DNA of 36,178 nt, taken from NCBI GenBank assembly GCA_018241725.1, contig JAFEDI010000071.1, positions 1 through 36,178 of the forward strand, read 5' to 3'. The translations under genes were made by a program, and so were the position numbers. This DNA comes from Pseudomonadota bacterium. Lineage in GTDB: Bacteria > Pseudomonadota > Gammaproteobacteria > Burkholderiales > Rhodocyclaceae. The notes below the pieces were generated by a model that did not search any database, had not been told where the DNA came from, and saw only the letters and a program-made list of their open reading frames with translations. Positions 1 to 8,290 of this stretch are shown here, piece by piece (the first letter of the stretch is position 1; each line of letters starts with the position of its first letter).

Positions 1-150
1 CTGCCCGTGCTGCGCTACGTCCATCCCGACACCTTCAAGATGTTCGAGACCGAAGCGCTGAAGATGGGCTTCAAGAACGCCGCCTGCGGCCCGATGGTCC
101 GCTCGAGTTACTGGGCGGATCAGCAGGCGCATGGAGCGGGGGTGGTGTAA
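1..150 (+). CDS. lipA: Lipoyl synthase, C-terminal end (partial)
   Basis: The first 49 codons are open from the window edge to a TAA stop. The peptide contains [13 protein letters not shown] and [12 protein letters not shown], the conserved C-terminal tail of lipoyl synthase. This radical-SAM enzyme inserts two sulfurs into protein-bound octanoyl groups to make the lipoyl cofactor of 2-oxoacid dehydrogenases and the glycine cleavage system. The radical-SAM core and cysteine clusters lie outside the window. A strong hairpin 36 bases after the stop closes the transcript. The identification rests on the tail alone, which is distinctive. Confidence 0.93.
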
Positions 151-4362: not shown

Positions 4363-4393
4363 TCTGCCCCCCGCCGCCAAGCTGGGGGGCAGA
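4363..4393. repeat. Perfect 10-bp inverted repeat
   Basis: The arms TCTGCCCCCC (4363-4372) and GGGGGGCAGA (4384-4393) pair perfectly around an 11-base loop. The hairpin lies 30 bases upstream of the leader-peptide start and would form in that transcript. No T-tract follows on either strand, so it is not a simple terminator. Confidence 0.6.
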
Positions 4394-4486
4394 ACCGTGC
4401 AGGTTGGCGGACCGGAATCTAGGAACCGGCAGGGTTTCCCCTCCCGCACGGCCCGCCCACTGGGGACGACACCATGCTCCGGACGC

Positions 4487-4509
4487 AAAAAAAAACCGCT
4501 CGGGGCGGT
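4487..4509 (-). terminator. Intrinsic terminator upstream of the leader peptide
   Basis: On the minus strand ACCGC and GCGGT form a stem with loop CCCGA, followed by nine T residues. An outer pair GGACG / CGTCC (4481-4485 with 4510-4514) could enclose it. On this strand it lies about 150 bases before the leader-peptide gene and could act as an attenuator. No gene that it would simply terminate was found on the minus strand to its right. Confidence 0.7.
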
Positions 4510-4878
4510 CGTCCGACTAGATTGATCCGGGCCGCCAAGCCCGGCCACTGTTGTTTACAGCGGCCCCCGCATGATGCGCCGCGGGGCTCCGTGACGCAAG
4601 ATCGGTGGCCAGCGCATTCATTTCCGCTACGAGGCCATCTCGACCGGCACACCGCCGGGATCCGCTTTGAAGAACGACAACACGAGCGGCGACCCGGAAC
4701 TCGCACCCTGCCGTCTCCACACCTTTCTCCAGCGCACCAGTGCAGTGCCGGCGTTTTTCCGTTGCACCACATCGGCTCCCCATTTCAGGACGAATCATGC
4801 TTCCCAGCCCCGAAATGGCGCTTTTCTCCATGGAACGTTTTTTGCACTGCAACAGACAATCGTCAACGGAGAGCCAAC

Positions 4879-5874
4879 ATGGCCGCGAACTGCACCTGGG
4901 ATTCCATGGATGTCCATCTGCTGCGCGTACTACACGCCCTGCTGACCGAGTGCAGCGTGAGCAAGGCGGCACGCCGCCTCAACCAGTCCCAGCCCGCGGT
5001 CAGCACCGCGCTGCGCCGCCTGCGCGACATCACCGGCGACCAGCTGCTGGTGCGCTGTCGCAACGGCATGACGCCCACCGAGCGCGGCGCCGGGCTGCTC
5101 GAGCCGGTCAAGATCGCGCTGCAGCAGATCGAGGCCATCGCGGTGCGGCAGGTCAAGTTCGACGCCGCCAGTTCGCGGCGCATCTTCAACATCGCCACGC
5201 CGGACTACCTCAACGCGGTGCTGCTCGGCGAGATCGTCGCCCGCCTGCGCAAGCTGGCGCCGCACAGCCAGGTGGCCTTTCATTCCCTCGGGCCGGATTA
5301 CGACTACGCCCGCGCGATGGAGAACGGCGAGCTCGACGTGGTGATCGGCAACTGGCCGCAGCCGCCGGAAAACCTGCGCATCGCGCCGCTGTTCGAGGAC
5401 GAGGTGGTGTGCCTGATGCGCAAGGGCCATCCGCTGGCCGGCAAGCCGCTGGGCACCGCCGAATACCTGGCCGCCGAGCACCTGGTGCCGACGCCCTACG
5501 CAGTGGGCCAGCGCGGCGTCATCGACCTGCACCTGGCCCGCGAGCGCATGAAGCGCAACGTGGTGGCCTACGTGCCCTACTTCGGCCTGGTGCCCTACCT
5601 GCTGCTGGAGACCGACATGCTGTTCTCCAGCCCGCGGATCTTCGCCGAGCACTGCGCCAAGATGATGCCGCTGGCGGTTGCCGAGCCGCCGATCGAGTTT
5701 CCGAAGATGAGCTTCTACCTGCTGTGGCACGACCGCAGCCACTACGAGGAGGAATGCCGCTGGTTCCGCGAGCAGATCATCTCGGTGGTGCGCAACTCGC
5801 CGGCCCTGCAAAAGCCGGTCGCCGCCGCACCAAAGGGCCGCGCGGCCGACAGCGGCGCCTACGCCACGGTTTGA
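4879..5874 (+). CDS. LysR-family transcriptional regulator
   Basis: The product is 331 residues. A winged helix-turn-helix occupies about residues 13-70, with SVSKAARRLNQSQPAVSTAL as the DNA-binding core. An inducer-binding domain follows from about residue 95, of the NodD-like type judging by the ATPDYLNAVLL and GELDVVIGNWPQ motifs. ATG at 4879 was chosen because GGAGAG ends five bases before it and similarity begins there; the frame is open further upstream but without family sequence. The target is unknown. The gene converges on the sigma-54 activator, with the 21-bp array between them, so it need not control the alcohol operon. Confidence 0.85.
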   Translation: MAANCTWDSMDVHLLRVLHALLTECSVSKAARRLNQSQPAVSTALRRLRDITGDQLLVRCRNGMTPTERGAGLLEPVKIALQQIEAIAVRQVKFDAASSRRIFNIATPDYLNAVLLGEIVARLRKLAPHSQVAFHSLGPDYDYARAMENGELDVVIGNWPQPPENLRIAPLFEDEVVCLMRKGHPLAGKPLGTAEYLAAEHLVPTPYAVGQRGVIDLHLARERMKRNVVAYVPYFGLVPYLLLETDMLFSSPRIFAEHCAKMMPLAVAEPPIEFPKMSFYLLWHDRSHYEEECRWFREQIISVVRNSPALQKPVAAAPKGRAADSGAYATV

Positions 5875-5921
5875 TGCGGAACTGCCAGCCCGCCCCGACC
5901 GATGCCGGGGGCAGGCTGCCG

Positions 5922-6215
5922 GGCGAAATTTTCATGCGGAAGAATGATTTTTTCCCGCCGAAAAATCATTTTTTGGGGGGAAATTTCCGTTTTTTCATAT
6001 GACATAAAAATCCGGTCATATGAAAAATTCCTCGAGATGCGTGGCGGAACGATTTTTTCCCGTGACAGATTCGTTCCGAGACGCCGCTGGATGATCGCGA
6101 CACGTGACGGAATCATTGCGCCACATGACAAAACGCCCGGGCGGCGTGGCGCAGCGATTTTTTCTGCCGAAAAATCGATTTTTTCGGCAGAAAAAATCTT
6201 CCGGCGGCCCGACCG
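5922..6215. repeat. Array of 14 degenerate units with exact 21-bp period
   Basis: Fourteen consecutive 21-base units run without a single insertion or deletion. The rough consensus is AACGATTTTTT (positions 1-11) then CCCGTGACGG (12-21). Position 1 is A in 11 of 14 units, position 6 is T in 12, position 17 is G in 12 and position 18 is a purine in all 14. Six units carry a T6 tract at positions 6-11. Both strands stay open and code loose heptads (for example IFSRDRF and IFSAEKS), explaining spurious frames at 5902-6270 and 6016-6321. The array lies between the 3' ends of two convergent genes. It is not CRISPR: there are no unique spacers. Confidence 0.85.
5945..5978. terminator. Hairpin within the array, possible LysR terminator
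   Basis: Arms TGATTTTT (5945-5952) and AAAAATCA (5961-5968) pair across neighbouring array units, and TTTTTT follows. It could end the LysR transcript. A second dyad with 13-base arms (TTTTTCATATGAC at 5991-6003, GTCATATGAAAAA at 6015-6027) and a near-perfect one centred at about 6177 also form between adjacent units. Confidence 0.5.
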
Positions 6216-6325
6216 AAGCCTTCATCCACGACATGCCACGAGTGGCGCACAGCGACGGCTGATTCCGTGACGGGCGCGCGGCGTTCCGCGCCTGCACGCC
6301 GGCCCCCGCAACGGCGCGCAAAACC

Positions 6326-8290
<1,965 letters not shown>

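What the first reader, a model, noticed from the sequence alone, without database searches (positions are those of the whole stretch)
5922..6215. Fourteen-unit array with a strict 21-bp period between convergent genes
Units are strongly diverged in sequence (some share under half their bases with the consensus), yet no insertion or deletion breaks the 21-base register over 294 bp. Fixed spacing with free sequence suggests selection on spacing. Twenty-one bp is both two turns of B-DNA and seven codons. Phased T6 tracts would curve the DNA and neighbouring units pair into hairpins, so the array could be a curved or protein-coated boundary or a terminator block. A heptad-coding relic is the alternative.
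Basis: partly seen in the sequence, partly recalled or inferred. Interest (0 to 1): 0.75.

Follow-up and report, generated by a model that had tools for sequence, protein, structure and literature searches.

The report
Genus-restricted 21-bp array of half-sites
Between two genes of this bacterium lies one of a small family of DNA arrays whose letters change quickly but whose 21-letter spacing and internal pattern stay fixed, which suggests a row of landing sites for an unknown DNA-binding protein.

Summary
A 21-bp period (autocorrelation z=8.0, peaks at multiples up to 126) runs without an indel over 5929-6230. It is one of a dispersed family: about 4 arrays in this genome, arrays or fragments in 8 of 23 genomes of the genus, none in 37 genomes of other genera, and no match outside the genus in wider draws of 297 and 399 genomes. 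Each unit is two inverted half-sites about 10.5 bp apart. Half-sites fall mostly into two classes (T-N-Y-K-N-C-A and C-S-G-G-Y-G-G). Columns inside a half-site are tightly coupled; paired arms mostly are not. Between orthologous arrays differing by up to 35%, 158 of 159 half-sites classified in both keep their class, and changes at column 7 are mainly G<->T (14 of 18). Coding and intrinsic curvature are not supported; RNA hairpins only weakly. Best reading, inferred: a row of cooperative half-sites on one helix face for an unidentified protein, with an architectural or insulating role. A selfish satellite-like element is the main rival. Paper searches found no description of such arrays.

The parts
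5929..6230 (.). Array of 14.4 units of 21 bp, read as alternating inverted half-sites about 10.5 bp apart; no register break
5946..6028 (.). Highest-scoring four-unit block (65.5 bits with model R1, which was built partly from this array)
6051..6133 (.). Second four-unit block (51.7 bits with R1), rich in G+C half-sites
6156..6198 (.). Two T6/A-rich units forming a perfect 19-bp inverted repeat with a 5-nt centre
   Evidence: I3
5991..6027 (.). Perfect 13-bp inverted repeat TTTTTCATATGAC / GTCATATGAAAAA within two units
   Evidence: I6
4474..5874 (+). LysR-type regulator, 3' end faces the array (ORF as listed; the HTH domain begins at residue 148, so the true start is probably further downstream)
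6326..8290 (-). Sigma-54 activator with GAF and Fis-type HTH domains (654 aa), 3' end faces the array

Best explanation
The array is a row of about 29 DNA half-sites for one sequence-specific protein that binds cooperatively. Each half-site spans about 10 bp and follows one of two grammars. Half-sites alternate in orientation about every 10.5 bp, so successive dyads lie every two helical turns on one face. Exact spacing lets neighbouring dimers touch and coat or wrap the 218-408 bp of intergenic DNA, as Lrp-type octamers or centromere-binding proteins do on their own site rows. Bases may change where the grammar allows, so units diverge, but a 1-bp shift would rotate a site off the face. Shown: the array family, its register, the two-class grammar, conservation of class strings, and restriction to one genus in the sample searched. 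The protein is not identified.
For: Period of exactly two B-DNA turns with dyads at the unit centre and at the junction. Strong coupling is mainly within half-sites and mirrored in both halves: 5-6/17-18, 4-6/17-19, 9-10/13-14, 6-9/14-17 (237 units from 17 of 24 long arrays). Columns 7, 9, 14 and 16 are nearly two-letter (K, S, S, M). In 7 comparisons of orthologous arrays: at column 7, 14 of 18 changes are G<->T and none C<->T; at column 16, 11 of 12 are A<->C; at column 9, 7 of 9 are C<->G; at column 14 the bias is weaker (8 of 15 C<->G). Of 195 half-sites compared, 124 are class I and 34 class II in both, 1 switches, and 36 are unclassified in one or both. Change per site is lowest in columns 4, 9, 14, 16, 19 and 20 (0.09-0.15) and highest in 2, 11, 12 and 21 (0.33-0.42). 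Larger indels in orthologues are mostly unit multiples. The palindrome is nearly confined to arrays: 20 of 24 pattern matches in the genome (both strands counted; reversed control pattern 2).
Against: No protein is identified. A dedicated ParB paralogue does not track the arrays. Indel depletion is modest and was not tested against clean intergenic DNA. Arrays are patchy within the genus, so they are dispensable there; a tree of 18 of 23 genomes needs at least 3 changes, and one array in G018 carries an IS3-like insertion. Neighbouring genes are unrelated (11 of 20 scanned have Pfam hits, to diverse families), which gives no functional hint. Adjacent half-sites are not fully independent: 7-16 pairs at both dyads and a few others exceed expectation.
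Confidence: 0.5

Rival explanations
1. A selfish, satellite-like or MITE-like repeat that spreads between intergenic sites; the grammar is the recognition code of the enzyme that moves or copies it, with no host function.
For: Orthologous gene pairs lack the array in other species: in 4 genomes the hits on the two genes of the window locus lie 84-137 bp apart, in 14 genomes 29-143 bp apart at the C145 locus. Non-orthologous arrays of one genome can align end to end (G018:C83 with C76, 82.8% over 239 bp). Host genes are unrelated. Y1-transposase hits lie about 2 and 3.5 kb from arrays in G019:C83 and G021:C3, though array-free G006 also has such hits near its MBL genes.
Against: Only about 1-6 arrays per genome, kept at the same loci across several species. 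Y1 transposase (REP-type) does not track arrays: 4 of 8 array-bearing genomes have no hit (G000, G009, G016, G020), 4 do (G003, G018, G019, G021), and 4 array-free ones do (G006, G012, G013, G015). No insertion boundary or target duplication could be drawn. This model gives no reason for conserved half-site class strings.
Confidence: 0.22
2. The arrays are transcribed and work as rows of RNA hairpins (terminators, RNA stabilisers or sponges).
For: The window array folds far better than 100 dinucleotide shuffles (-122.1 against -90.9 kcal/mol, z=-5.8). Perfect stems at 6156-6198 and 5991-6027. Against half-site shuffles the mean z over 17 arrays is -0.66, with five arrays below -1.8. A weak whole-array symmetry is possible: the best palindrome shift is within 16 bp of zero in 10 of 24 arrays.
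Against: Most arm pairs do not covary: only 7-16 (both dyads) strongly and 11-12, 5-18, 21-2' mildly; most others sit near expectation. Mixed I-II units put C-C or G-G at columns 9-14. Two arrays fold worse than half-site shuffles (z +2.1, +3.1). No Rfam match in the array at gathering scores. Terminator-like sites at chance level.
Confidence: 0.13
3. Intrinsically curved DNA from phased A/T tracts.
For: T6 and A5 tracts recur in several units at multiples of 21 bp.
Against: Predicted curvature is not above 25 dinucleotide shuffles per array in 24 arrays (mean z -0.48; window -0.67), while a phased A-tract control scores high (parameters recalled from memory). T- and A-tracts in one unit lie about 12 and 9 bp apart, not at 10.5.
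Confidence: 0.04
4. Relic of a heptad-repeat protein gene (21 bp = 7 codons).
For: Frame 2 is open across the window array and stop-free in 11 of 22 segments.
Against: 11 of 22 segments carry stops in that frame. The other two forward frames hold TGA in the consensus. Column 7, a third codon base in that frame, is G or T and avoids C, unlike coding in a GC-rich genome (inference). The grammar is mirror-symmetric on both strands.
Confidence: 0.01

Closest known systems
Lrp/AsnC-type operator rows (e.g. BarR of Sulfolobales)
   Same: Several semipalindromic sites; for Sa-BarR and St-BarR equal residues lie two helical turns apart, and DNA wraps an octamer (PMC10201364, passages read)
   Different: 4-5 sites in one intergenic region beside the regulator gene; here 11-19 units, several loci per genome, unrelated neighbours, two half-site classes, protein unknown
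Plasmid centromere arrays such as F sopC, and parS/Noc sites (recalled)
   Same: Tandem palindromic sites; unit core TTTGTCAC/GTGACAAA looks parS-like (recalled resemblance)
   Different: sopC units are near-identical 43-mers (recalled); here window units are 44% identical; no ParB paralogue tracks the arrays
AraC-family rhamnose-regulator operators with 21-bp periodicity (PMC3870299)
   Different: A two-copy direct repeat in promoters of a regulon; here 11-19 inverted-symmetric units in a few gaps
BRE, betaproteobacterial repeat element (PMC3110155)
   Same: Intergenic, dispersed, sometimes tandem, copy number varies between species (section 14 and passages read)
   Different: BRE is about 90 bp, averages 69% G+C and is conserved in sequence; here the unit is 21 bp with a degenerate grammar
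REP/BIME palindromic repeats with RAYT transposase (recalled)
   Same: Short intergenic palindromes in clusters
   Different: No strict 21-bp register (recalled); Y1 transposases do not track these arrays

Membership tests
Lrp/AsnC-type operator row | Semipalindromic sites about two helical turns apart | tested here: met
   21-bp period with dyads
Lrp/AsnC-type operator row | Bound by an Lrp/AsnC protein | not testable with these tools
   No binding data; such proteins were not searched for here
ParB/parS-type centromere | A cognate ParB-type protein that is present where the sites are | tested here: not met
   One strong HTH_ParB hit in 22 of 23 genomes with or without arrays; extra copies above the cut-off in G019 and G020 (arrays) and G008, G011, G015 (no arrays). 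Binding by the chromosomal ParB itself was not tested
ParB/parS-type centromere | Near-identical palindromic sites | tested here: not met
   Mean unit identity 44% in the window
REP/BIME with RAYT | Y1-type transposase in the genomes that carry the repeats | tested here: not met
   No hit at E<=1e-5 in 4 of 8 array-bearing genomes; hits in the other 4 and in 4 array-free ones
BRE | About 90-bp unit conserved in sequence, about 69% G+C | tested here: not met
   21-bp units, arrays 36-54% G+C; BRE data from PMC3110155 section 14
Intrinsic terminator block | GC stem followed by a T run, above chance | tested here: not met
   2 found, 1.0 +- 1.2 expected in 5700-6500
Intrinsically curved DNA | Predicted curvature above shuffles | tested here: not met
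   mean z -0.48 in 24 arrays
Protein-coding heptad repeat | One open frame in all copies | tested here: not met
   stops in frame 2 in 11 of 22 segments
Structured RNA | Compensatory changes along stems | tested here: inconclusive
   only 7-16 strong, 11-12, 5-18 and 21-2' mild; folding beyond half-site shuffles weak and mixed

The most novel reading that the evidence does not exclude
Each array carries a heritable two-letter string of half-site classes (I/II) that is kept between species while the bases turn over at roughly synonymous rate. A polymerising nucleoid protein confined to this genus would read that string, so the arrays would be lineage-specific chromosomal landmarks: DNA elements whose conserved information is class order and helical register, not sequence.
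Probability: 0.3. Interest if true: 0.85.

Novelty: new variant of a known kind. Interest (0 to 1): 0.68.

Why it matters
Ordinary similarity tools barely see such arrays: Tandem Repeats Finder reports two fragments, and BLAST with the window array finds short pieces of only two of the other arrays in its own genome. If the reading is right, bacterial chromosomes can hold architectural elements conserved in register and class pattern only, and others may have been missed elsewhere. The two-class half-site code gives a direct, testable bait for finding the protein.

Tried and rejected
Coding frames, curvature, terminators, Rfam families, arm covariation as hairpins, a whole-array giant palindrome (above the maximum of 30 unit shuffles in 3 of 24 arrays), a ParB paralogue, Y1 transposase, viral contigs with an exact two-unit pattern (0 matches), plasmids and phages by BLAST in 'distant' mode (no match). 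A split array in G018:C37 raised the idea of an autonomous element with its own gene; the insert is an IS3-like orfA/orfB unit with terminal inverted repeats, judged by eye and not scanned against a library. Eight paper searches were made (the last aimed at Lrp rows); none of the listings looked like a description of such arrays. Three papers were opened: passages of PMC10201364 and PMC3870299, passages and section 14 of PMC3110155. The others were seen as listings only.

Weak points: R1 was built from arrays of this genome and R2 from the genus, so arrays with another consensus would be missed, and hits on the building arrays are by construction. Searches of over 40 genomes used stricter filters. 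The array HMM kept the better strand only. The first tree mixed strands and was discarded; one search replaces it. Printouts of minus-strand loci show the wrong strand and were not used. Some ORFs are shadow frames, so gene orientation is stated only where a Pfam hit supports it. An earlier count gave 8 indel events and 28 arrays; the recount is 7 events in 30 segments.

Partial inputs: R1 used 18 of 30 four-unit rows; R2 used 34 of 46. Coupling, arm-pairing and folding tests used 17 of 24 long arrays, those without indels. Frame counts used 22 of 30 segments. The column-change table used 7 of the 15 array pairs; pairs share members, so counts are not independent. Indel ratios come from 9 pairs and only from well-aligned columns. 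The tree used 18 of 23 genus genomes.

Full report
What is there. The region between the LysR-type regulator (ends 5874, +) and the sigma-54 activator (ends 6326, -) holds a 302-bp array, 5929-6230, with a strict 21-bp period. Autocorrelation at lag 21 is 0.469, z=8.0 against 1000 dinucleotide shuffles, with peaks at every multiple up to 126. The thirteen whole units match their consensus at 8 to 17 of 21 places, and there is no indel.

It is a family. The window is contig C120 of a 5.93-Mb genome. Pattern, BLAST and profile searches found the same kind of array at C145, C91 and C129, with a 58-bp fragment at C76 and a weak piece (25.9 bits) at the end of C132. C132 carries the MBL gene that flanks the C129-type array in relatives, so C129 and C132 are probably one array split by an assembly break (inference). 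Profile R1 finds matches in 8 of 60 relatives: G000, G003, G009, G016, G018, G019, G020 and G021, all among the 23 genomes of the same genus; 0 of the 37 others. Profile R2 finds matches in 7 of 297 genomes drawn from the family, all in this genus (G019 is not among the matching rows), and in 1 of 399 drawn from the order, the window's own genome. G003 holds only a 94-bp piece, G009 one array. The genus is not named here; good named matches of the sigma-54 activator, an Azoarcus MAG (51%) and Denitromonas (48%), suggest a betaproteobacterium near the Rhodocyclales (inference).

Array anatomy. An HMM with free indels gave 30 segments in 31 stretches searched (8,026 bp, about 385 units), with one indel in each of 7 segments. 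On the better strand of each stretch it reported nothing else above 15 bits. The 24 segments of at least 200 bp run from 218 to 408 bp; those of G018 and G019 are 226-249 bp. The unit is a dyad, roughly S-A-T-T-Y-Y-K-T-S-R-Y-R-Y-S-A-M-A-A-A-A-T. In 24 of 24 long arrays the best autocorrelation lag is 21 or 42.

Grammar. Mutual information across 17 indel-free arrays (237 units) is strongest inside each half-site and mirrored between halves. Half-sites fall into class I (T4, Y6, K7, C9, A10) and class II (C4, G6, G7, G9, G10): 341 class I, 83 class II and 65 unclassified of 489. Class II follows class II less often than chance would give: 2 times within a unit (about 6.6 expected from the margins) and 4 across a junction (about 7.1). 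Arm pairs mostly pair no more than column composition predicts; exceptions are 7-16 at both dyads (z 7.0 and 6.4) and milder 11-12, 5-18 and 21-2' (z 3.5-4.4). Half-sites therefore behave mainly as modules, not as two arms of one hairpin.

Evolution. The same gene pairs carry arrays in several species: the window locus in G000, G016, G020 and G021, the C145 locus in G000, G016 and G020, and, by shared neighbours, the MBL locus in G000, G016, G018, G019, G020 and G021. In four genomes (G004, G011, G012, G019) the hits on the LysR and sigma-54 genes lie 84-137 bp apart, without room for an array; at the C145 locus 14 genomes have 29-143 bp between the two hits, and G021 has 178 bp holding other palindromic repeats. 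Orthologous arrays are 65-95% identical. Their divergence is near that of fourfold sites in adjacent genes, from about 0.4 to 2.5 times: 0.225 against 0.232 for G020/G016 at C145, 0.27 against 0.11-0.13 for window/G020, 0.048 against 0.126 for G020/G016 at the window locus (some ORFs are shadow frames and were not used). Even so, classes hold (I-I 124, II-II 34, switch 1, unclassified in one or both 36, of 195), and at column 7 changes are mainly G<->T (14 of 18), column 16 A<->C (11 of 12), column 9 C<->G (7 of 9), column 14 C<->G (8 of 15). Neutral drift would favour transitions, so this is purifying selection on a grammar or a copying process that imposes it (inference). Larger gaps between orthologues are 42, 21+21 and 13+8 bp; single-base gaps also occur, and the distant G021:C3/G020:C22 alignment has untidy gaps. 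Indels per substitution are 5/552 in arrays against 25/1353 in non-ORF DNA that still contains unlabelled genes and 16/2058 in ORFs, so indel depletion is suggestive, not proven.

Alternatives. Coding fails (stops in frame 2 in 11 of 22 segments). Curvature fails. Terminators are at chance, and arrays also lie directly upstream of genes: moeA in G000:C91, an MFS gene in G019:C55, the MBL gene in G018:C88. RNA folding is strong for the window array (z=-5.8), but relative to half-site shuffles the mean z over 17 arrays is only -0.66; five arrays fold better (below -1.8) and two worse (above +2). A selfish element remains possible: arrays are patchy on the tree (at least 3 changes), neighbours are unrelated, paralogous arrays in G018 align end to end, and Y1-transposase hits lie about 2 and 3.5 kb from the arrays of G019:C83 and G021:C3, although array-free G006 has such hits near its MBL genes too. 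Overall neither ParB paralogues nor Y1 transposases track the arrays.

Mechanism. The simplest account is a row of half-sites read by a cooperative DNA-binding protein on one face of the helix. Two Lrp-type BarR regulators are predicted to use 4-5 sites two helical turns apart, and a relative wraps DNA around an octamer (PMC10201364, passages); this is the closest physical analogue. AraC-family rhamnose regulators have direct repeats with 21-bp periodicity (PMC3870299, passages), which shows that this spacing suits dimeric regulators, but not in long arrays. Which protein binds here, and whether the outcome is insulation, chromosome architecture or something else, is not shown. In the four genomes where parB and an array share a contig (G018, G019, G020, G021) the distance is about 89-130 kb, at two different gene pairs; this hints at a copy near parB, but other arrays lie elsewhere.

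Novelty. Eight full-text searches gave no listing that looked like a description of such arrays; the most similar repeat paper opened, on BRE (PMC3110155, passages and section 14), describes a different repeat. The broad kind, tandem protein-site arrays, is known; the diverged two-class half-site code with fixed register is not known to me.

Noticed in passing
window 4382-4463 (-) and 4489-4564 (-): Rfam C4 antisense RNA (46.2 bits) and isrK (58.9 bits) lie side by side near the start of the LysR ORF, on the other strand; they suggest a prophage remnant.
   Followed up: no
L187 about 5055-6260 (G018:C37): An IS3-like orfA/orfB element with terminal inverted repeats interrupts a 21-bp array; an ACGC stretch on both sides may be the target duplication (by eye).
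   Followed up: partly
L191 4400-4700 and L250 about 2200-2400 (G021): Several copies of another palindromic intergenic repeat, GGGCGAATNAATTCGCCC-like, beside one array and in place of an array at the C145 locus.
   Followed up: no
L193 3003-3120 (-) (G021:C10): RT-12 RNA family match (76.2 bits) about 1.9 kb from the array.
   Followed up: no
G018:C38, G019:C55, G020:C13, G021:C10: parB and an array share a contig at about 89-130 kb in four genomes, although the host gene pair differs between G018/G019 and G020/G021.
   Followed up: partly
G019:C83:15663-15887, G021:C3:133924-134235: Y1-transposase domain hits a few kb from MBL-locus arrays; array-free G006 has similar hits near its MBL genes.
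   Followed up: no
G000:C132 end and C129 start: The assembly probably breaks inside an array, so array counts in draft genomes may be too low.
   Followed up: partly
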